DNA of 24,429 bases from a virus, in IMG/VR virus record IMGVR_UViG_3300010399_000077, positions 1 through 24,429 of that record. The stretch is one strand, 5' to 3'. The position numbers and the translations under genes were made by a program. This document shows positions 2-8,368 of this stretch, piece by piece. How positions within the stretch are numbered: the first letter of the stretch is position 1; the number at the start of each line of letters is the position of its first letter. The notes beneath the pieces are model-generated. The model was not told where the DNA came from. It did not search any database and saw only the letters and a list, made by a program, of their open reading frames with translations.

Positions 2-103
2 CGCGAGGAAGACATAAAGGCTGTGCGTGAAGCCAATCTCCCTCGGTTACTCGGCATAGCCAGTGCCGTCAAAGCAGCAATGGAGCGAAACAATGTCCGG
101 TAG
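2..103 (+). CDS. C-terminal end of an unidentified early phage gene (partial)
   Basis: An open frame enters from the left edge and runs 33 codons to a TAG stop. It begins REEDIKAVREANLPR and ends AMERNNVR. The piece is charged and helical-looking, with no recognisable domain. Its last 11 bases overlap the start of the ERF gene, and the same 11-base overlap recurs four more times downstream, which supports it as a real member of the early operon. The true start lies outside the window, so no function can be given. Confidence 0.6.
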   Translation, partial: REEDIKAVREANLPRLLGIASAVKAAMERNNVR

Positions 104-881
104 TGCAGTTGCAGAGCGCCAGGATCACGCGCCGGCCAATGTCGAGCAGCATCCGGCGAGCGATAGCGCCTCGCTGATCGCCGTCATCAGCCGCGCCGCT
201 TCCGACCCGAATGTGGACATCGACAAGATGGAACGGCTCATGCAGATGCACGAGCGGCTGACCGAGCGCGCCGCCAAGGCCGCGTACTTCGCCGCGCTCG
301 CCGAAATGCAACCGGAGCTTCCGGTGATCGAGCGCAACGGCAACATCGTCATCCACAAGAAGGACGCTCCGAAGACGGCGGAGAACGTCATCCAGAGCAC
401 GTCATACGCGCTTTGGGAAGACATTAACGAGGCCGTGCGCCCGCTTCTGGCGAAGCACGGATTCGCCCTGTCGTTCCGGGTCAAGAAGGACGCCGACCGC
501 GTAGAGGTTACTGGCGTTCTCTCGCACCGCGAAGGGCACTTCGAGGAAACCACGCTCAGCCTGCCGATGGATACCACAGGCTCGAAGAACAACGTCCAGG
601 CCATCGGCTCAAGCACCTCCTACGGCAAACGCTACACGGCCATGGCGCTGCTGAACATCACGACGCGCGGCGAAGATGACGATGGCAAGCGCGGCGGCGA
701 TCCGGGCACGATCACGGACGAGCAGCGGGACGAGCTGCTAGCCCTCCTTGCCGACGCCAAGGTCAACGTCGAGGACTTCTGCAAGTTCGCCAAAATCGAT
801 GCGTTGAGCGACCTGCCGGCGGCAAAGTTCGATGTCGCCAAACAGCGCATTCAGAACCGGAAGGCGAAGACCAATGTCTGA
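93..881 (+). CDS. erf: ERF-family single-strand DNA annealing protein (phage recombinase)
   Basis: This protein should bind single-stranded DNA and anneal complementary strands during phage recombination or genome circularisation. The 262-residue product has an ERF-like core at about residues 100-205: an SYALWEDINEAVRPLLAKHG segment, then SSTSYGKRYTAMALLNIT followed by an acidic GEDDDG. These are the hallmark stretches of the ERF superfamily. The start at 93 is chosen because GGAG lies 7 bases upstream; an in-frame ATG at 63 has no such site. The C-terminal third (after about 205) is charged and probably binds partners. The next gene is a YqaJ-type exonuclease, the usual partner of such annealing proteins, and it overlaps by 8 bases. 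Family assignment is by recognition; annealing activity is inferred. Confidence 0.88.
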   Translation: MSGSAVAERQDHAPANVEQHPASDSASLIAVISRAASDPNVDIDKMERLMQMHERLTERAAKAAYFAALAEMQPELPVIERNGNIVIHKKDAPKTAENVIQSTSYALWEDINEAVRPLLAKHGFALSFRVKKDADRVEVTGVLSHREGHFEETTLSLPMDTTGSKNNVQAIGSSTSYGKRYTAMALLNITTRGEDDDGKRGGDPGTITDEQRDELLALLADAKVNVEDFCKFAKIDALSDLPAAKFDVAKQRIQNRKAKTNV

Positions 882-1497
882 GCTAACCATCTACGATTTC
901 GAGCAGGGGTCGGCGGAGTGGCATCAGGCCCGCTGCGGCGTCGTCACCGCTTCGCGGTTCAAGGACGTACTGGCGGAAGGCGACGGCAAGATGCGCGGCA
1001 AGTATCTACGCGAACTCGCCTCGGAAACCATCCGTGGATGGGTCGAGGACGGCTATTCCAACGAGCACATGGCCAGAGGCCAGGAGCAGGAGGACGACGC
1101 CCGGCGCGCCTTTGCATTCGAGCACGCGATTGAGCCGATCCGCGTGGGCTTTATCCGCCGGGGTCGCGTCGGCTGCTCGCCGGACAGCCTCATCGGCGAA
1201 GACGGTGGGCTCGAAATCAAGTCTGCGCTCGGTCACATCCAGATCGATCGATTGCAGCGCGGCAGACTCCCGCCGGAGCACATCGCGCAAGTTCAAGGAT
1301 CGTTGTGGGTCACCGGCCGCAAGTGGTGGTCGTTCGTCTCGTACTCGCCCGACCTACCCTTGATGCATGTGCGCGTCGAGCGGGACGAGGAATACATCGC
1401 CCGGCTTGCCAAGGCGGTAGATGCGTTCACTTCCGAGCTAGACGCCCTAGTCGCCTCGCTCGCCCCTCGCGAAGCCTTCAGGAGGGCCGCAGCATGA
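874..1497 (+). CDS. YqaJ / lambda-exonuclease-like viral recombinase nuclease
   Basis: A 207-residue PD-(D/E)XK nuclease expected to resect double-stranded ends so that the upstream ERF protein can load. Visible features are an N-terminal GSAEWHQARCGVVTASRF segment typical of YqaJ proteins, and the catalytic core CSPDSLIGEDGGLEIKSA with D104, E114 and K116. The Asp-to-Glu spacing of 10 and the following E-x-K are as in lambda exonuclease. Downstream, AQVQGSLWVTG carries the conserved glutamines. Length is normal for the family. The start at 874 overlaps the ERF stop by 8 bases and lies about 9 bases after GGAAGG; the earlier in-frame ATG at 832 is deep inside ERF. The gene forms a two-gene recombination module with ERF. 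Confidence 0.88.
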   Translation: MSELTIYDFEQGSAEWHQARCGVVTASRFKDVLAEGDGKMRGKYLRELASETIRGWVEDGYSNEHMARGQEQEDDARRAFAFEHAIEPIRVGFIRRGRVGCSPDSLIGEDGGLEIKSALGHIQIDRLQRGRLPPEHIAQVQGSLWVTGRKWWSFVSYSPDLPLMHVRVERDEEYIARLAKAVDAFTSELDALVASLAPREAFRRAAA

Positions 1498-2418: not shown

Positions 2419-2819
2419 TGCCCCGTAGCGTGACTGAGTGGGTCGGGAAGACCGACGATACGCCAGCCCCGCCCCGCGTCCGGCTTCGCGTATGGGACAA
2501 CTGCAACGGACAGTGCCATCGGTGCGGGCGCAAAATCCCTGTCGGCGATGCCTGGATACTTGAGCACCTGATCGCGCTCATCAATGGCGGTCTGAATGCG
2601 GAATCGAACCTCTGCCTCACCTGCTCGTGGTGCAAGCCGATCAAGGATGCGGAGGACGTAGCCGAGAAGGCCAAGGTCGCGGCTGTCAAAGCGAGCCACG
2701 TTCTACCGCGCGGTCCGTCTCGGCTTCGCGGTCAAGGATTCCTCAAGGCCGCGCCGCAGCATCGAGCCACAACCCCACTCTCGGATAAATTCCCCCTCGC
2801 CCGGAAGGAACCCACATGA
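2418..2819 (+). CDS. HNH-endonuclease-like zinc protein
   Basis: This 133-residue protein has the outline of a small phage HNH nuclease. C33-x2-C36 and C69-x2-C72 would hold a structural zinc, and between them lie EHLIAL (E49-H50) and N64 in a GGLNAESNL stretch, where HNH proteins usually show D/E-H and N. The third catalytic His, usually just after the second CxxC, is not there: the sequence reads CSWCKPIK. It may therefore be an atypical or weakened nuclease, or a DNA-binding derivative. The following AEDVAEKAKVAAVKASH is typical of the family. Such genes often sit near packaging or recombination functions. The start overlaps the previous stop by one base (TGATG). Confidence 0.78.
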   Translation: MPRSVTEWVGKTDDTPAPPRVRLRVWDNCNGQCHRCGRKIPVGDAWILEHLIALINGGLNAESNLCLTCSWCKPIKDAEDVAEKAKVAAVKASHVLPRGPSRLRGQGFLKAAPQHRATTPLSDKFPLARKEPT

Positions 2820-3214
2820 CCGCCATGACAGACGAGAAGCGAGTGAGCGAGTTACTGCCGTGCCCGTTTTGCGGGGGCAAAGCTAGCGTTCGACACGAGC
2901 GCGACCTTTATCTTGATCGATACCAGCGGCACTTTGTGAAATGTGGTTCGTGCGGAGCCAGTGGCTCGGAAAAGATCGCCAATGAAGACGACGCTTACGG
3001 CGCGATCCAGTCCGTCCTCGCCGGCTGGAACCGCCGTTCACAAGAACCCGATGGGTGGCAGCTGGTGCCGGTAGAGCCGACACTGATCATGCAACAAGCT
3101 GGCCTGCGCCAGCTTCAAGACAACCTGGGCGAGTCCGCCGTGATCATCCGCGACCCGCTGCTTTGCTACCGCGTCATGATCGCCGCAGCTCCATCACCCA
3201 AAGAGGGGAAGTAA
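2816..3214 (+). CDS. Lar-like (restriction-alleviation type) zinc-ribbon protein
   Basis: The N-terminal 50 residues carry LLPCPFCGGKA (C16, C19) and VKCGSCGASG (C43, C46), the four-cysteine layout of the Lar/restriction-alleviation family of small phage and prophage proteins. Lar of the Rac prophage modulates type I restriction, but most relatives are untested. After residue about 77, DGWQLVPVEPT starts a second module that recurs in ea22-like phage proteins, so this is a two-module fusion of 132 residues. The start at 2816 overlaps the HNH stop by 4 bases (ATGA). An alternative ATG lies three codons in. An anti-restriction function is inference only. Confidence 0.78.
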   Translation: MTAMTDEKRVSELLPCPFCGGKASVRHERDLYLDRYQRHFVKCGSCGASGSEKIANEDDAYGAIQSVLAGWNRRSQEPDGWQLVPVEPTLIMQQAGLRQLQDNLGESAVIIRDPLLCYRVMIAAAPSPKEGK

Positions 3215-4012
3215 ATGACCCACCCCACCCATGGTCTCGATCCCAATGCGCTGGAGGCGGCGCCTCTCGGCTATGTCACCGAAACTGCCGCCGAAGCCAT
3301 GCGCGCTGCCAAGCCCGGCTGGCATTACCACGTCTTCGTCAAGGATCAGTCAGACCCGAAAGCGACCGTGGCCCTCTACACCCACCCCGCCTCCCCTCCT
3401 GTCGGGGGAGCGGTGAAGGTTAAGCCGCTGGAGTGGCATCCGATCAGCAATGGTGACTGGTCGGCTGACGGCGCACTTGGCAAATATCAGTGCCTTGTCT
3501 CCGGCAAGAAGTACATCGTTCTGTTGGATGGAATTAAGGCAGCAGTTCAACTAGTCGCCAAGGACTTGCGCACACACGTGGAAGCCAAAGCAGCAGCCCA
3601 GGCCGACTACGAGACCCGCATCCTCAGCGCCCTCGCCTCCTCCGAACGTAGCGAGAGAGAGGCGGAATACGTCCCGACGATCATTCGCAACGATAGCGCC
3701 GGCTTTTACGAGTTCGTCACGGAGGATGTGCCTGCTCTATACAGCGGCATCATGGCCGCGAACGTTGAGCGCATTGGGACGCTCAAGGGCGACCTTATCG
3801 GGTTCCGCATCTATGACCCCCTCGAACCCCGCGCGAGCGACAGAGCGCGGACGATAGAGGAATGCGCGAAGGTCGCGGATGGTGTGCGCCAACGCCTTGA
3901 GGCTGGCCGTAACGGCAAACCTCTGAGCCAGATCGATGAGCACACCGCCGGGACTGGCGATCGCATCGCCGCCGCCATCCGCAAGCTCTCTGAGGTCTCC
4001 CATGAGCACTGA
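3215..4012 (+). CDS. modular early phage protein (ea22-like mosaic), function unknown
   Basis: A 265-residue protein starting immediately after the previous stop. It reads as a chain of short modules seen in many dispensable early phage proteins: an N-terminal YVTETAAEAMRAAKPGW ... VALYTHPASPP segment (to about 63); a VKVKPLEWHPI ... GKYQCLVSG segment (about 66-95) with the AKAAAQADYETRI helix (about 125-137); an unknown middle with YVPTIIRNDS; and a C-terminal RTIEECAKVADGVRQRLE ... GDRIAAAIRKL tail. No catalytic motif is visible. The mosaic build suggests growth by recombination between phages. The last 11 bases overlap the next gene. Confidence 0.72.
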   Translation: MTHPTHGLDPNALEAAPLGYVTETAAEAMRAAKPGWHYHVFVKDQSDPKATVALYTHPASPPVGGAVKVKPLEWHPISNGDWSADGALGKYQCLVSGKKYIVLLDGIKAAVQLVAKDLRTHVEAKAAAQADYETRILSALASSERSEREAEYVPTIIRNDSAGFYEFVTEDVPALYSGIMAANVERIGTLKGDLIGFRIYDPLEPRASDRARTIEECAKVADGVRQRLEAGRNGKPLSQIDEHTAGTGDRIAAAIRKLSEVSHEH

Positions 4013-4015
4013 GGC
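4000..4015 (+). repeat. 16-base start-codon repeat, copy 1 (copy 2 at 4233-4248)
   Basis: CCATGAGCACTGAGGC occurs exactly at the starts of the genes at 4002 and 4235, giving both proteins an MSTEA leader. Their sequences then diverge completely, so only the entry to the gene is shared. Confidence 0.8.
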
Positions 4016-4238
4016 GCACCACCCTTGGGGCATTCACACGATAGGCGATATGATCGCGCCGAAGTCGATCGCCGCTGGAATGCCGGACGGCCGATACGTC
4101 CGCGCTGTTCCCGAGCCGTACTACGTGCTCGGCATTCGCGAGCGCCTGACCGCCGCATGGTGGGTGATGACGCACCGCGCCTTCGCCGTCCAGTGGCCGA
4201 AGCCGGGCGACCTCGAAAAGGCAATCGAACGGCCATGA
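4002..4238 (+). CDS. small unknown early protein with MSTEA leader
   Basis: This 78-residue product begins MSTEAHHPWGIHTIGDMI and contains an aromatic-rich segment (RLTAAWWVMTHRAFAVQWP). The hydrophobic run is short and interrupted by charges, so I do not call a membrane segment. Its first 14 bases repeat exactly at the start of the next gene. The start at 4002 is chosen over 3936 because it carries the repeated leader and overlaps the previous gene by only 11 bases. No family is recognised. Confidence 0.68.
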   Translation: MSTEAHHPWGIHTIGDMIAPKSIAAGMPDGRYVRAVPEPYYVLGIRERLTAAWWVMTHRAFAVQWPKPGDLEKAIERP

Positions 4239-4471
4239 GCACTGAGGCACTGACGAAGGCGCTCGACCGCGTGGAACTTATCGATTGTCCGGCGTGCGGT
4301 GGCGAAGGCGGCCACTACGAACCGGAACAGCGCTTCTCACGCTGGCACCTCGACCCTCCCGGCGAAATCTTCGTCCCGTGCGAAGAATGCCACGGCGCGG
4401 GGATGGTTGAAGGGGTTGCCGCCTCCCTTGACCTTTTCGACCTAGCCGAACGTTGTGGAGACGCCGCATGA
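4235..4471 (+). CDS. small DnaJ-type zinc-finger protein
   Basis: The 78-residue product has two CxxCxGxG-type knuckles, C18-PACGGEG and C49-EECHGAG. This is the pattern of the DnaJ central zinc domain, cut down to one zinc site. Proteins of this size with that knuckle pair are frequent in phage early regions; their role is unknown, with protein or nucleic acid binding most likely. The leader MSTEALTKAL is shared with neighbouring genes at the DNA level. The start overlaps the previous stop by 4 bases. Confidence 0.75.
   Translation: MSTEALTKALDRVELIDCPACGGEGGHYEPEQRFSRWHLDPPGEIFVPCEECHGAGMVEGVAASLDLFDLAERCGDAA
4241..4262 (+). repeat. 22-base start-proximal repeat, copy 1 (copy 2 at 4749-4770)
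   Basis: The stretch beginning ACTGAGGCACTGACG is identical at 4241-4262 and 4749-4770, giving TEALTKA near the start of both proteins. The following sequence is unrelated: one gene encodes a zinc knuckle protein, the other a winged-helix-like protein. Confidence 0.85.
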
Positions 4472-4749
4472 AATATCCAACGCCACGAGCCGAAGGCCAC
4501 TACTGGGCGAAGCTAGTCCATCCATCCGGCGTTCCGGAGGGCGAGGCCGACGACCTCCGTTCCGTCAATTGGGAAGTTGTCCAAGTCTATGAGAACGGCG
4601 GTCCAGATGGCAACCCTGATTTCTGGCGCGCCCATGTGCCGGGCATCCAATCCTCGCAATCCATCGAAGATTTTGTATGGGGTCCGCGCGTCCCGGATTG
4701 GCCCACGTCGAAGGACAGGGGCTATCTCAGCGGGAGGCGCCACTCATGA
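4468..4749 (+). CDS. small unknown early protein
   Basis: A 93-residue protein beginning MKYPTPRAEGHYWAKLVHP. It contains a compact, aromatic-rich region around NWEVVQVYENGGPDGNP and WRAHVPGIQ, a look shared by small single-domain phage proteins that read 'GHYWA(K/R) ... W ... V'. No catalytic or metal-binding residues stand out. GGAG precedes the ATG by 8 bases and the start overlaps the previous stop by 4 bases. Confidence 0.72.
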   Translation: MKYPTPRAEGHYWAKLVHPSGVPEGEADDLRSVNWEVVQVYENGGPDGNPDFWRAHVPGIQSSQSIEDFVWGPRVPDWPTSKDRGYLSGRRHS

Positions 4750-4967
4750 CTGAGGCACTGACGAAGGCGCAGCGGATGATGCTCGAAGCGGCGAACGAGC
4801 ACAATGGGCAGGGCGGCGTTCTAGGCTTCGGCCCACATCGCCAAGTTCAAGATCGGCTGCGGCTGCATGGCCTTCTCACGATAGAGCGCGGTGAGGACGG
4901 ATACTACCACATCACCCCCGCCGGTCGCGCCGCTCTTGCCACCAAGGAGAACAGCAATGGCCCGTGA
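4746..4967 (+). CDS. small winged-helix-like protein
   Basis: A 73-residue product. From about residue 34, QVQDRLRLHGLLTIER followed by GYYHITPAGRAAL resembles the recognition helix and wing of MarR-type or replication-type winged helices, with the common ITPAGRAAL ending. It may bind DNA as a local regulator, but there is no direct evidence. The 5' end repeats 22 bases found at the start of the gene at 4235. The start overlaps the previous stop by 4 bases, and the 3' end overlaps the next gene by 11 bases. Confidence 0.7.
   Translation: MTEALTKAQRMMLEAANEHNGQGGVLGFGPHRQVQDRLRLHGLLTIERGEDGYYHITPAGRAALATKENSNGP
4946..4959 (+). repeat. 14-base ribosome-site/start repeat, copy 1 (copy 2 at 5148-5161)
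   Basis: GGAGAACAGCAATG contains both the ribosome site and the ATG of the genes at 4957 and 5159. It also encodes the ENSN ending of the two upstream proteins. The repeat therefore duplicates a whole gene junction, including its 11-base overlap. Confidence 0.8.
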
Positions 4968-5169
4968 CGAACTCAATGCGGCACAAGAGGCCGACCTCTC
5001 ATTGTCCGGCAATGAGCTTAGCGCCGTGTGGGCAGCGCTCGTGGCGATGGTGGAGGATAACCACTCCCCGCAAGATTGTCTCACCGCAGCACAATGGGAA
5101 GCCGCCGCCGGTCTGCTTTCCCGCATCACGTCGATGATCGAAGAGCCGGAGAACAGCAATGCAGGCTGA
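4957..5169 (+). CDS. small acidic helical protein of unknown function
   Basis: This 70-residue acidic protein starts MARDELNAAQEADLSLSGNE and is predicted to be mostly helical. Both the sequence before its ATG and the sequence before the next gene's ATG are GGAGAACAGCAATG. As a result this protein and the one before it end similarly (ENSNAG and ENSNGP). That duplication supports both the start choice and a cassette history. No domain is recognised. Confidence 0.68.
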   Translation: MARDELNAAQEADLSLSGNELSAVWAALVAMVEDNHSPQDCLTAAQWEAAAGLLSRITSMIEEPENSNAG

Positions 5170-5398
5170 CGCCACAAGGGCGAAGGAACTGGCGCGAGTC
5201 CGCCGCAATCTGCATCCGCACGCTGAAGCTCGACTGGCCATGGCCATGTGGTCGCATGAGTACGCGCACGAGCAGAATGGCGGTTCAATGGACTTTTGGG
5301 ACTCACTCAGCCCGCAGCGCAAGCGGCTGTGCGTCGATGTAGTTACTGACATCATCGCGGCCAATGCCGAGAACGGTCGTGCGGAGGAAAAGCCATGA
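5159..5398 (+). CDS. small unknown early protein with TRAKELA leader
   Basis: A 79-residue product beginning MQADATRAKELARVRRN, followed by MAMWSHEYAHEQNGG and FWDSLSPQRKRLC. The HEYAHE stretch looks like a metalloprotease HExxH but lacks the exact spacing and the rest of such a fold, so I do not read it as an enzyme. Twenty-one bases near its start recur at the start of the next gene. The ATG follows GGAGAACAGCA and overlaps the previous gene by 11 bases. Confidence 0.68.
   Translation: MQADATRAKELARVRRNLHPHAEARLAMAMWSHEYAHEQNGGSMDFWDSLSPQRKRLCVDVVTDIIAANAENGRAEEKP
5174..5194 (+). repeat. 21-base start-proximal repeat, copy 1 (copy 2 at 5398-5418)
   Basis: A stretch beginning ACAAGGGCGAAGGAACTGG is identical near the 5' ends of the genes at 5159 and 5395 (TRAKELA in both proteins). 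The proteins are otherwise unrelated. Confidence 0.85.
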
Positions 5399-5757
5399 CA
5401 AGGGCGAAGGAACTGGCGGGGCTGATCGAGAGAGTCGAGAAGGCAACGGGGCCGGATGGCGCGATTGATGATCTTCTTTACTGGACGTTGAAACAGCATC
5501 CGGCGAAGGGGCCGTTTGCTCGCATCCCGGCCTATACCGCCTCCATCGACGCTGCCGTGGCTCTGGTTGAGCGGTTGCTGCCGGGCATCTTTTGGGTCAT
5601 CGGCCAAGGCAAGACGAACTCAGTCGAGAAGCTGTTCGGCTGCCAACTGCTGTTCGGAACCGAGGAGATCATTGGCTCGGGCGAGTCAGACCACGCGCCC
5701 CTCGCCATCCTCCTTGCCCTTCTCAAGGCCCTTCAGGAGTCCCAAGATGCACAGTGA
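5395..5757 (+). CDS. phage ABA-sandwich-like protein, function unknown
   Basis: This 120-residue protein starts MTRAKELAGLIERVEKATGP and contains YTASIDAAVALVERLLPG followed by a strand-rich segment and a C-terminal helix LAILLALLKAL. The 'LIERVE.A.GPD ... YTASIDAA..L' layout is what I associate with the small phage ABA-sandwich type proteins common in rhizobial prophages. Their role is unknown. The gene overlaps its upstream neighbour by 4 bases and its downstream one by 11. Confidence 0.72.
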   Translation: MTRAKELAGLIERVEKATGPDGAIDDLLYWTLKQHPAKGPFARIPAYTASIDAAVALVERLLPGIFWVIGQGKTNSVEKLFGCQLLFGTEEIIGSGESDHAPLAILLALLKALQESQDAQ

Positions 5758-6130: not shown

Positions 6131-6378
6131 GGTCAGTTGGCACACATCCGCATAAGCTCGATCATATCGTCGTAGAGCTTTGCCCAGGAGCCGGTACTGT
6201 CGGGATGTTCCTCGAGACAGACCCCAAGCACGTCCGCGTCAGCTCTGATCGCAGCTCGTCGTCCAGCCGATCGATCCCCGGCTTCAACCGCTCGCCTGTG
6301 CTCATGGAACCTGCGGCGCAGCTCTACGACTTCATCTGCCCAATCGATCTCGCTCATATCGTGGAGAGTGCTACGTGA
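6127..6378 (+). CDS. alternative + strand reading frame opposite the antisense candidate
   Basis: An 83-codon frame beginning MRSVGTHPHKLDHIVVELCP. It overlaps the previous stop by 4 bases (ATGA) and its own stop overlaps the next start by 4 bases (GTGA), exactly the spacing used throughout this operon. Against it, the middle reads SSDRSSSSSRS, typical of a shadow frame opposite an Arg/Ala/Asp-rich protein. Third-position GC is similar on both strands, so codon use does not settle it. I rate it slightly less likely than the - strand frame. Confidence 0.35.
   Translation: MRSVGTHPHKLDHIVVELCPGAGTVGMFLETDPKHVRVSSDRSSSSSRSIPGFNRSPVLMEPAAQLYDFICPIDLAHIVESAT
6133..6357 (-). CDS. possible antisense small acidic protein inside the early operon
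   Basis: Read on the - strand, 74 codons give MSEIDWADEVVELRRRFHEH at the start and YDDMIELMRMCAN at the end. The product is acidic and amphipathic with protein-like composition, more natural than the serine-rich product of the opposing frame. It fits almost exactly between the stop at 6130 and the start at 6375. No clear ribosome site precedes it, and its orientation is opposite to every neighbour. It is mutually exclusive as an interpretation with the + strand frame 6127-6378, unless both are used. Confidence 0.45.
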   Translation of the reverse strand: MSEIDWADEVVELRRRFHEHRRAVEAGDRSAGRRAAIRADADVLGVCLEEHPDSTGSWAKLYDDMIELMRMCAN

Positions 6379-6725
6379 CGACGACAGAGAGCAAGCCCGA
6401 GTTTCCGGCCGACGTGTGGAGGACGGCCAGCGACATGCCGCTCGATGATACTGGCGACATGGACCATGACATTTCGGTGGCAATCGCCCGCGGCATCATG
6501 GCCGAACGCGAGCGCTGCGCCAGCAAGTGGCTGCCGATCGAGAGCGCGCCGAAGGATGGGACTCTCATAATCGCATGGGCATCTGGCGATCTGCCGTACA
6601 TCTCAAGTTGGATGGTGGATCGCTGGTCGCATAATGTCAGCCGTCGCCGCAGCCTGATGCATCCGCAGCCGACGCACTGGCTCATCGCCCTCCCACCCCC
6701 TCCCAACGGAGACGTGCGGGGATGA
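6375..6725 (+). CDS. DUF551-like phage protein
   Basis: A 116-residue protein with a GTG start preceded by GGAGAG. After an N-terminal AIARGIMAERERCASKW helix (about residues 37-52) comes WLPIESAPKDGTLIIAW ... SSWMVDRW ... THWLIALPPPP. This is the W-P-I-x-S-x-P ... THW-x-x-LP-x-P pattern of the DUF551 domain found in many lambdoid and rhizobial early proteins. Its function is unknown. Four-base overlaps lie at both ends if the + frame at 6127 is real; otherwise only downstream. Confidence 0.78.
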   Translation: MTTTESKPEFPADVWRTASDMPLDDTGDMDHDISVAIARGIMAERERCASKWLPIESAPKDGTLIIAWASGDLPYISSWMVDRWSHNVSRRRSLMHPQPTHWLIALPPPPNGDVRG

Positions 6726-6871: not shown

Positions 6872-7188
6872 GCGACGACCGTCAGGAATTTCACGACCGC
6901 TTCTATTTCCAGCGCGGACCGTGCTGCGCAGGATGCGACTGGTGGCGGTCGCTCAACAGCCGGGTAGGCGAATGCACCAAGAGCGCGCCGGTTGCTGGCA
7001 GGACGCGATACGCAATGCTGGGGATGGAAGGCAGTTCGTTGCTGTTGACCGCAGGCCACGTCCTGACCCGGATGGACCACGACTGCGGCGACTTCAAGGA
7101 TGATTTTGACTGGACCTCGTTGCCGCTTCCATACCGCAAACGTGTCGGCGCACCGCTTCCCGCCCCCTCCGGGAGTGAACAGAGGTGA
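6868..7188 (+). CDS. Cys-rich metal-binding-like early protein
   Basis: This 106-residue protein uses GTG (GTGA overlap; GGAGGG lies 5-6 bases upstream). It shows GPCCAGCDWW (C19, C20, C23), then GECTKSAP (C36), then a distal DHDCGDF (C73). The CxxC-x12-C-x36-C arrangement with flanking W and the GDF/GEF motif recurs in small alphaproteobacterial phage proteins and suggests a zinc or Fe-S site. Function is unknown. It directly precedes the helix-turn-helix/integrase pair and overlaps it by 4 bases. Confidence 0.75.
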   Translation: MSDDRQEFHDRFYFQRGPCCAGCDWWRSLNSRVGECTKSAPVAGRTRYAMLGMEGSSLLLTAGHVLTRMDHDCGDFKDDFDWTSLPLPYRKRVGAPLPAPSGSEQR

Positions 7189-7529
7189 GCGTAGCCATCC
7201 CAGAAATGATTAGCCCGCAGGATTTGGCCCGGAAATTGGGCTGGAGCACTAGGCGGCTCAAGGCTTTCGCGAGGGGCCTTGGCGCTTGCCGGATAATGGG
7301 CAATCGTATGGCCTTCACCCAGGCAGACGTTGACGCGATTTTGGAGGCCAGTCGGCCATGCCCCTCAAGCTCAAGAAGCGCGGCGAAATCTGGCACTACA
7401 CCGGCACCGTTGCCGGGCGGCGACTACGCGGCTCTACTAAGACTGCGCAACGCAAAGAAGCCGAGCGGATCGCGAACGAAGTCGAATCCCGAGAGCTCCA
7501 AGGTCGTCGCGATCCGGGCTCGGTCCTGA
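7185..7529 (+). CDS. excisionase-like helix-turn-helix protein overlapping integrase
   Basis: This 114-residue protein starts with GTG in a GTGA overlap. Residues 8-55 (MISPQDLARKLGWSTRRLKA ... MAFTQADVDAIL) form a MerR/excisionase-type winged helix-turn-helix. The tail (about 58-114), beginning RPCPSSSRSAAKSGTT, is basic and unstructured and is read from the same DNA as the first 57 codons of the integrase. I recall similar tails in rhizobial phage homologues, which suggests the overlap is conserved rather than an artefact. Its likely role is recombination directionality (Xis) or regulation of int. The position just before int supports Xis. Confidence 0.75.
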   Translation: MSVAIPEMISPQDLARKLGWSTRRLKAFARGLGACRIMGNRMAFTQADVDAILEASRPCPSSSRSAAKSGTTPAPLPGGDYAALLRLRNAKKPSGSRTKSNPESSKVVAIRARS

Positions 7530-8368
7530 CTTTTGCACAGGCTGCCATCGAATACCGGAAGGTCCATGGCGCCCCAAGATATCTCGAGCTGGTCGAGGAC
7601 TATTGGAAGGACACGCCGGTCCGGCAGATCACCGGAGGCGCGGTGAAGCGCGCCGCCGTTGCGCTGCTGCCCGAAGGGAAAAGCTCCTACCGGAATCGGG
7701 CCGTCGTCGCTCCGACGCTGGCCGTCATCAACTACGCGGCCTCGCTCGACATGTGCCCGCCGCTCAAGATCGAGCGCTTCTCCGAGGTCAAGGCGACGAA
7801 AGAGCCAGTGACGCTTGAATGGATCGAAGCGTTCGTGGCGCACAGCTCGGCGCACCTTGGCGCGCTCGCCTGCTTCATGTTCGGGACGGGGGCACGGATC
7901 AGCGAAGCGCTAGACGTGCACTGGCGCGACGTGGACCTGCAAGGCAGGCGCGCAACGATCCGCATGGGGAAGCTCGGGGGAGAGGAACGGCGCGCACATC
8001 TGCCGGCGCCCGTGGTAGCTGCCCTGGCCAACATCCCGAGCAACCGCGAGCCGGGTGCCAGGGTGTTCCCATACGCCAGCTATACGGGCTGTAAAGACCC
8101 GTGGGCGGTCGCCGTGCGGCGCGCCGGCATCAAGCCGCTGACGCCGCACTGCTGCCGCCACGGCTTCGCCACGACGCTGCTGCACGCAGGGGTCGACCCG
8201 ATCACCGTGGCGAAACGCGGCGGCTGGAAAGACCCGGCGCAGCTCTTCCGCACCTATGGGCATGCGATGGACGACGAGACCGTGACCGATCTGCTTTTTG
8301 ACACGCCACGGGCACATGTCGAAAAGGACAACGCGCAAAGCGTTGAAAATGCAAAGAAAAGCGCCTGA
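7358..8368 (+). CDS. int: tyrosine-recombinase integrase
   Basis: A 336-residue phage integrase catalysing site-specific strand exchange between attP and attB. The N-terminal MPLKLKKRGEIWHYTGTVAG ... STKTAQRKEAE is an arm/core-binding entry typical of this group, so the start at 7358 is kept although it lies inside the helix-turn-helix gene. The catalytic set is complete: R180 (GTGARISEAL), K205 (MGKLGG), H264-x2-R267 (HCCRHGFATT), W290 in the GGWKD position often held by His/Trp, and nucleophile Y300 (RTYGHAM). The gene is the last of the early operon, with no separate promoter visible. It faces the convergent late arm across a 207-base gap. Confidence 0.95.
   Translation: MPLKLKKRGEIWHYTGTVAGRRLRGSTKTAQRKEAERIANEVESRELQGRRDPGSVLTFAQAAIEYRKVHGAPRYLELVEDYWKDTPVRQITGGAVKRAAVALLPEGKSSYRNRAVVAPTLAVINYAASLDMCPPLKIERFSEVKATKEPVTLEWIEAFVAHSSAHLGALACFMFGTGARISEALDVHWRDVDLQGRRATIRMGKLGGEERRAHLPAPVVAALANIPSNREPGARVFPYASYTGCKDPWAVAVRRAGIKPLTPHCCRHGFATTLLHAGVDPITVAKRGGWKDPAQLFRTYGHAMDDETVTDLLFDTPRAHVEKDNAQSVENAKKSA

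What the first reader, a model, noticed from the sequence alone, without database searches (positions are those of the whole stretch)
4000..5418. Exact short repeats at gene starts suggest a cassette-shuffling array of small early genes
Four different exact repeats (14-22 bases) sit precisely at start codons or start junctions of consecutive, otherwise unrelated genes: 4002/4235, 4235/4746, 4957/5159 and 5159/5395. Together with the operon's uniform 4- and 11-base overlaps, this makes each small gene an exchangeable unit bounded by short homology that also supplies the ribosome site and start. Such repeats could be recombination points for gene gain, loss or reordering.
Basis: partly seen in the sequence, partly recalled or inferred. 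Interest (0 to 1): 0.62.

Follow-up and report, generated by a model that had tools for sequence, protein, structure and literature searches.

The report
Start-site repeats marking inserted phage genes
In this phage's crowded operon of small genes, neighbouring unrelated genes share short identical stretches around their start codons; related phages show that such stretches sit exactly where single genes have been added or lost, so they look like scars left each time a new gene is spliced in front of an old one.

Summary
All four exact repeats exist at the stated places (16, 22, 14 and 21 nt) and are far beyond chance. Across 51 related phage loci, start regions of unrelated genes share exact repeats of 14 nt or more in 18 gene pairs (0.25-0.9 expected). 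Fourteen of the 18 are immediate neighbours (14/1,313 adjacent pairs against 2/10,910 pairs three or more genes apart), and all 18 are in frame. Two further sets of loci show the same pattern. Paralogy and a dispersed regulatory element do not fit. Relatives supply natural experiments: three times a gene (or two) is present in one phage and absent in a near relative, with the joint inside a 15-16 nt start repeat (L004/window at 1494, L091/L092, L178/L184). In L178 the newcomer took over the resident gene's ribosome site and the resident keeps a 15-nt copy, which points to insertion. Window gene 5159 carries an N-terminal graft, matching its neighbour's start, that eight homologues lack. Best reading: start-site duplications left when single genes are inserted into an operon of overlapping genes; the same repeats allow clean, in-frame loss. 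No relative covers 4000-5418, so the history there is inferred. Known kind (phage mosaicism); the signature appears to be a new variant.

The parts
4000..4015 (+). Repeat D5 copy 1, CCATGAGCACTGAGGC, start of gene 4002-4238
4233..4248 (+). Repeat D5 copy 2, start of gene 4235-4471
4241..4262 (+). Repeat D1 copy 1, ACTGAGGCACTGACGAAGGCGC, codons 3-9 of gene 4235 (MSTEALTKA)
4749..4770 (+). Repeat D1 copy 2, codons 2-8 of gene 4746 (MTEALTKAQR; a similar small protein in L158, MVKLTKAMR, suggests that LTKA is native here)
4946..4959 (+). Repeat D8 copy 1, GGAGAACAGCAATG: ribosome site plus ATG of gene 4957, inside the 3' end of gene 4746
5148..5161 (+). Repeat D8 copy 2: ribosome site plus ATG of gene 5159, inside the 3' end of gene 4957
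5174..5194 (+). Repeat D2 copy 1, ACAAGGGCGAAGGAACTGGCG, codons 6-12 of gene 5159; N-terminal segment absent in eight homologues
5398..5418 (+). Repeat D2 copy 2, codons 2-8 of gene 5395
4002..4238 (+). small gene, 78 aa, weak match to phrog_21988 (unknown function)
4235..4471 (+). small gene, 78 aa, CxxC zinc-ribbon-like (weak DnaJ_CXXCXGXG / Anti-TRAP matches below cut-off)
4468..4749 (+). small gene, 93 aa, no family; lies with gene 4235 between the two D1 copies
4746..4967 (+). small gene, 73 aa, winged-helix-like (PadR match below cut-off)
4957..5169 (+). small gene, 70 aa, no family; flanked by the D8 copies
5159..5398 (+). small gene, 79 aa (RNLxPHAEARLAM...GGSMDFWD family), flanked by the D2 copies
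5395..5757 (+). small gene, 120 aa (LIxRVExATGPDREID family)
1480..1497 (+). Empty site: YqaJ-gene end and start of gene 1494; in relative L004 a 217-bp unit with one extra gene sits here between two copies of AGGAGCGCAGCATGA
93..881 (+). Erf-like single-strand annealing protein gene
   Evidence: phrog_155, 1.1e-50
874..1497 (+). YqaJ/RecE-like exonuclease gene
   Evidence: phrog_149, 1.8e-37

Best explanation
The repeats are start-site duplications: scars of single-gene insertions into a packed operon. A new gene enters at a resident gene's start through two short-homology joints placed a little past each other: the left joint at or just after the resident's ATG, so the newcomer takes over the resident's ribosome site, ATG and sometimes its first codons; the right joint upstream, so the resident keeps its own start. 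The overlap of the two joints is present twice, as a 14-22 nt direct repeat at the starts of newcomer and resident. In an operon where genes overlap by 4 or 11 nt and ribosome sites lie inside the upstream gene, an insertion must leave a start for both genes, so selection keeps mainly insertions that duplicate the start. The repeats then also allow clean in-frame deletion of the inserted gene (slippage or annealing), and fade by mutation. Shown: the repeats; adjacency and frame; three gene presence/absence cases with joints inside such repeats; start takeover and likely insertion polarity in L178. Inferred: that the window's four repeats arose this way; the molecular machinery (the phage's Erf/YqaJ pair is a candidate); the role of selection.
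For: Chance and adjacency: 18 pairs >=14 nt against 0.25-0.9 expected; 14/1,313 adjacent against 2/10,910 at distance 3 or more (Fisher p about 2e-12). Independent sets: L166-L226 6/891 against 3/7,992, p 6e-5; L154-L163 same trend. Frame: 18/18 in frame with every shift allowed, 15/18 at the same offset to ATG. Natural experiments: L178 has one extra gene between GAGGTGAGACATGAA copies, L184 has the joint; L091 has two extra genes between CCATGACCGAACAGAA copies, L092 has the joint, matching copy 1 to its left and copy 3 to its right; L004 has one extra gene between AGGAGCGCAGCATGA copies, the window has a single site. Polarity: the ~30-nt leader of gene Y in L184, L189 and L191 stands before the extra gene in L178, and Y keeps only the short copy. 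Graft: gene 5159 has TRAKELA (the D2 repeat) that eight homologues lack, while 5395 has about the N-terminal length of one homologue. Given the same peptide, identical codons have p about 0.001 for each of D1 and D2, so the sharing is at DNA level.
Against: No relative covers window 4000-5418, so insertion there is inferred. Polarity rests on one case; deletion between pre-existing repeats would give the same joints, and L191 also holds the extra gene, at another position. In distant pairs and in the marine set, gene indels show little repeat: repeats fade fast or are not always made. D1 flanks two genes, which needs a second event. Gene starts come from my own simple caller, and loci in the sets are partly related to each other.
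Confidence: 0.7

Rival explanations
1. The repeats pre-exist as recombination sites: short homologies that phage recombinases use to swap genes between phages and to delete genes.
For: Joints fall inside the repeats. The phage encodes Erf and YqaJ homologues. Single-strand annealing recombinases promote exchange between short, diverged sequences (PMC3945230, PMC2327257).
Against: At 14-22 nt the repeats are below the 23-27 bp minimal pairing segment cited for Red beta (PMC3945230). Many gene indels in relatives have only 3-8 nt. In L178 the polarity suggests the repeat was made by the insertion.
Confidence: 0.17
2. Selection for a shared translation-initiation element or a regulator's binding site at gene starts, like the start-associated sequences of cluster K mycobacteriophages.
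For: Repeats include ribosome site and ATG in part of the cases.
Against: Each repeat has its own sequence and almost only neighbours share it; the known element in TM4 is dispersed: none of 52 adjacent pairs, found with the same test. D1 and D2 lie inside coding sequence, without a ribosome site.
Confidence: 0.05
3. Whole-gene tandem duplication followed by divergence, the start being the last similar part.
For: Neighbours share starts.
Against: No paralogy flagged for any of the 18 pairs; flanks of the window's exact 14-22 nt repeats have 22-33% identity. Divergence would not leave an exact start next to unrelated bodies of different families.
Confidence: 0.04
4. Chance or assembly artefact.
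For: The window is a metagenomic-type virus record.
Against: Expected 0.25-0.9 against 18 observed; also seen in records whose identifiers suggest cultured-isolate genomes (L178, L184) and in a sequenced Bradyrhizobium prophage (L003).
Confidence: 0.02

Closest known systems
Phage genome mosaicism with joints at gene boundaries (illegitimate or homeologous recombination; lambda Red/Rad52-like recombinases, PMC3945230, PMC2327257)
   Same: Gene exchange with edges at gene boundaries; phage-encoded annealing recombinase present
   Different: Here the edges are start codons within overlapping genes, and an insertion leaves a direct repeat of the start region at both ends of one gene
Start-associated sequences (SAS/ESAS) of cluster K mycobacteriophages (PMC3203893)
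   Same: Repeated sequence at the starts of unrelated phage genes
   Different: SAS is one 13-bp consensus upstream of many dispersed genes and kept by gene family; here each repeat is private to neighbours and can lie in the coding region
PeSL mobile regulatory cassettes of T4-type phages (Arbiol et al. 2010, Comeau et al. 2014; known here only as cited in PMC4503421)
   Same: Short repeated elements at gene junctions in regions of gene shuffling
   Different: PeSLs are promoter plus stem-loop elements; these repeats lie in overlapping genes and span ribosome site, start or first codons
Conserved boundary sequences of lambdoid phages (recalled from memory, not read here)
   Same: Short shared sequences at edges of exchangeable segments
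   Different: Those are shared between phages at the same position; these are direct repeats within one genome flanking one gene; lambda and HK97 show none in the same test

Membership tests
Phage mosaic gene exchange at gene boundaries | Relatives differ by whole genes with flanks conserved and edges at gene boundaries | tested here: met
   in the window's own operon at 1494 only
Phage mosaic gene exchange at gene boundaries | Phage-encoded annealing recombinase present | tested here: met
   Erf-like phrog_155 1.1e-50, YqaJ/RecE-like phrog_149 1.8e-37
Phage mosaic gene exchange at gene boundaries | Gene gain or loss seen within 4000-5418 itself | tested here: inconclusive
   no relative covering that stretch was found
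Start-associated sequences (SAS) | One consensus upstream of many dispersed genes | tested here: not met
   each repeat has its own sequence, 14 of 18 pairs adjacent; TM4 recovered as dispersed
Start-associated sequences (SAS) | Lies upstream of the start codon | tested here: not met
   D1 and D2 lie wholly inside coding sequence
PeSL cassettes | Intergenic promoter plus stem-loop | tested here: not met
   the genes overlap by 4 or 11 nt, so there is no intergenic space; folding and promoter scans were not run
Tandem gene duplication | Bodies of the repeated genes are homologous | tested here: not met
Integron-type cassette array | Recombination sites (attC-like) and an integron integrase | not tested
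   the site-specific recombinase recognised among the early genes scanned is a phage integrase; attC folds were not searched

The most novel reading that the evidence does not exclude
Small-gene operons of temperate phages grow one gene at a time by a start-capture insertion: the newcomer seizes the resident's ribosome site and sometimes its first codons, and the duplicated start is a readable, fading mark of recent insertions that also makes each insertion reversible and creates N-terminal chimaeras.
Probability: 0.45. Interest if true: 0.68.

Novelty: new variant of a known kind. Interest (0 to 1): 0.54.

Why it matters
How single small genes are added to packed phage operons without breaking translation is largely unresolved. 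A start-site duplication is a signature readable in one genome that marks recently inserted genes, predicts clean deletions, and explains odd N-terminal extensions in phage proteins. It can be searched for in any phage genome and tested by passage and sequencing.

Tried and rejected
Direct relatives of 4000-5418: single-protein and 21-mer scans of viral contigs, phage records and 297 genomes found nothing close for 4235, 4746 and 5395, only weak distant hits for 5395; 5159 gave ten homologues in viral contigs. The one genome-contig scan gave only two Mesorhizobium prophages. Marine YqaJ relatives: gene indels with short repeats of 7 nt or less. Conserved neighbours with inserted genes: 38 cases, only the two closest pairs show 15-16 nt repeats. 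The first gene-call run missed two of the window's pairs because a different training set changed the called starts; it was repeated with the first training set. A blastn match to ppBeUSDA76-2 looked at first like the 4235 gene but is the xis-int region, as query coordinates are relative. Rejected: SAS-like element, tandem duplication, chance, assembly artefact (see rivals).
Full report
WHAT IS THERE. The window is a whole virus record of 24,429 bases. Its + strand early operon runs from an Erf-like annealing protein (93-881) and a YqaJ/RecE-like exonuclease (874-1497) through a run of small genes to an excisionase-like gene and an integrase at 7358-8368. The closest named relative by integrase is Bradyrhizobium phage ppBeUSDA76-2 (51% identity). 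Small genes overlap by 4 or 11 nt almost throughout, so ribosome sites lie inside the preceding gene.

THE OBSERVATION. The four exact repeats are real: 16 nt at 4000/4233, 22 nt at 4241/4749, 14 nt at 4946/5148, 21 nt at 5174/5398. Two classes exist: ribosome site to ATG (4946/5148), and ATG or early codons (the other three; the 22- and 21-nt repeats lie wholly in coding sequence). Flanks have no similarity (22-33% over 60 nt), and no repeat-sharing pair was flagged as paralogous. Given the same peptide, using the same codons has probability about 0.001 for each of the two coding repeats, so the sharing is at DNA level.

IS IT MORE THAN CHANCE. I wrote a simple gene caller and compared start regions (-18 to +36) of all same-strand gene pairs in 51 related loci (1,409 genes, 13,445 pairs). 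Exact matches of 14 nt or more: 18, against 0.25 (order 1) or 0.9 (order 3) from position-specific Markov models, which keep the ribosome-site and ATG consensus. Windows shifted inside or upstream of the genes gave 0-1. Fourteen of the 18 pairs are immediate neighbours (14/1,313), two are two genes apart, two are further (2/10,910); Fisher p about 2e-12. With all shifts allowed, 18/18 are in frame and 15/18 at the same offset to ATG. Two further sets agree: L154-L163 and L166-L226 (6/891 against 3/7,992, p 6e-5, 10/10 in frame; one distant hit there is a true paralogue pair). Controls: TM4's known start-associated sequence is recovered by the same test but is dispersed (no adjacent pair); lambda and HK97 show none. 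A common element would be dispersed; this one is local.

NATURAL EXPERIMENTS. (a) L004 (96% identical to the window over the recombination genes) has one extra gene between YqaJ and gene 1494, with AGGAGCGCAGCATGA at both ends; the window has a single such site. In L004 the first copy encodes the end of YqaJ while most of the second is noncoding, so protein constraint cannot explain the identity. (b) L091 has three consecutive unrelated genes starting CCATGACCGAACAGAA; L092 lacks two of them, and its joint follows L091 copy 1 to the left of the repeat and copy 3 to the right. (c) L178 has one extra whole gene between two copies of GAGGTGAGACATGAA; L184 has the flanking genes joined through one copy. 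In L184, L189 and L191 the resident gene Y has the same leader of about 30 nt; in L178 this leader stands before the extra gene and Y keeps only the 15-nt copy. The extra gene also occurs in L191 upstream of that leader, behind a different ribosome site, and there its end reads ACCGACTGAGG; in L178 that end runs into GAGGTGAGACATG. This suggests two staggered joints, GAGG on the right and ATGAA on the left, whose overlap is the repeat.

GENERAL PATTERN OF EDGES. Between close relatives, 37 of 69 right-hand homology edges lie within 20 nt of a start codon (8% expected), many of them 2-14 nt after the A of the ATG; 23 of 60 left-hand edges also (counts are not independent, as each edge is counted in both loci). 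Of 45 clean gene-sized indels among the prophages of L166-L226, about a third have both ends at start regions, usually with 4-8 nt of microhomology such as GGAGG or GCATGA (my count from the table). Long repeats are therefore a subset, expected for recent events or wider overlaps.

THE WINDOW'S OWN GENES. Eight homologues of gene 5159 start 2-8 residues before the shared RN motif or little more; the window protein has 15, and the extra part contains TRAKELA, the D2 repeat. Gene 5395 has about the N-terminal length of its homologue in L088. So 5159 carries a start segment matching its downstream neighbour, as expected if it was inserted at the start of 5395. Similarly LTKA looks native to 4746 by comparison with a similar small protein in L158 (a weak lead), making 4235 the candidate newcomer. 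Deleting between each repeat pair leaves intact reading frames.

EXPLANATION. Start-site duplication on insertion explains adjacency, frame, exactness, lack of flanking similarity, the range of 14-22 nt, N-terminal grafts and the empty sites. The machinery is not shown. The repeats are shorter than the 23-27 bp minimal pairing segment cited for Red beta (PMC3945230), so annealing, replication slippage or template switching at short homologies are all possible. Deletion between the repeats would give the same joints, and both directions probably occur.

LIMITS. No relative covers 4000-5418. Polarity rests on one locus family. Starts are computed, not measured. The literature search covered only open-access full texts, so a prior description of adjacent start duplications may exist elsewhere.

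Noticed in passing
window 7185-7529 and 7358-8368: The excisionase-like gene overlaps the integrase start by 172 nt in another frame; the arrangement recurs in many relatives, which keep high DNA identity across the overlap.
   Followed up: no
L191 5640-6077 and L178 4519-4959: The same small cysteine-containing gene (MKELGYEEGSIC / MNELGYEEGATC) sits at two different places of one locus in related prophages, each time joined at a start region; distant homologues occur in L204, L205 and L210.
   Followed up: partly
L184 about 6365-6403: A possible 12-codon leader reading frame (MTAIRRMHANAR) lies between two genes just before the start of gene Y.
   Followed up: no
L091 9622 and L092 8005: Two genes share the first about 14 codons (MTEQNKQSDTPAP) but have unrelated bodies: a second joint inside the coding region.
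   Followed up: partly
L155 559, 1380, 1684; L160 4958, 5277, 5469: Further triplets of nearby genes with shared ribosome-site/start repeats (AGGCTGGAGGCTGAT, GAGGGGTAAATGA).
   Followed up: no
L004 3533-3950: NinB-like gene after gene 1494 appears frameshifted, where the window has a different NinB-like family (phrog_15346).
   Followed up: no
L170, minus-strand positions 3678 and 5243: Two genes with identical starts (LKLLPYKPNVKCYCDFCG) eight genes apart: probably a true recent paralogue pair.
   Followed up: no
window 2816-3214 and 4235-4471: Lar-like restriction-alleviation protein and the 4235 zinc-ribbon-like protein show weak similarity around their CxxC motifs (E 7e-4).
   Followed up: no
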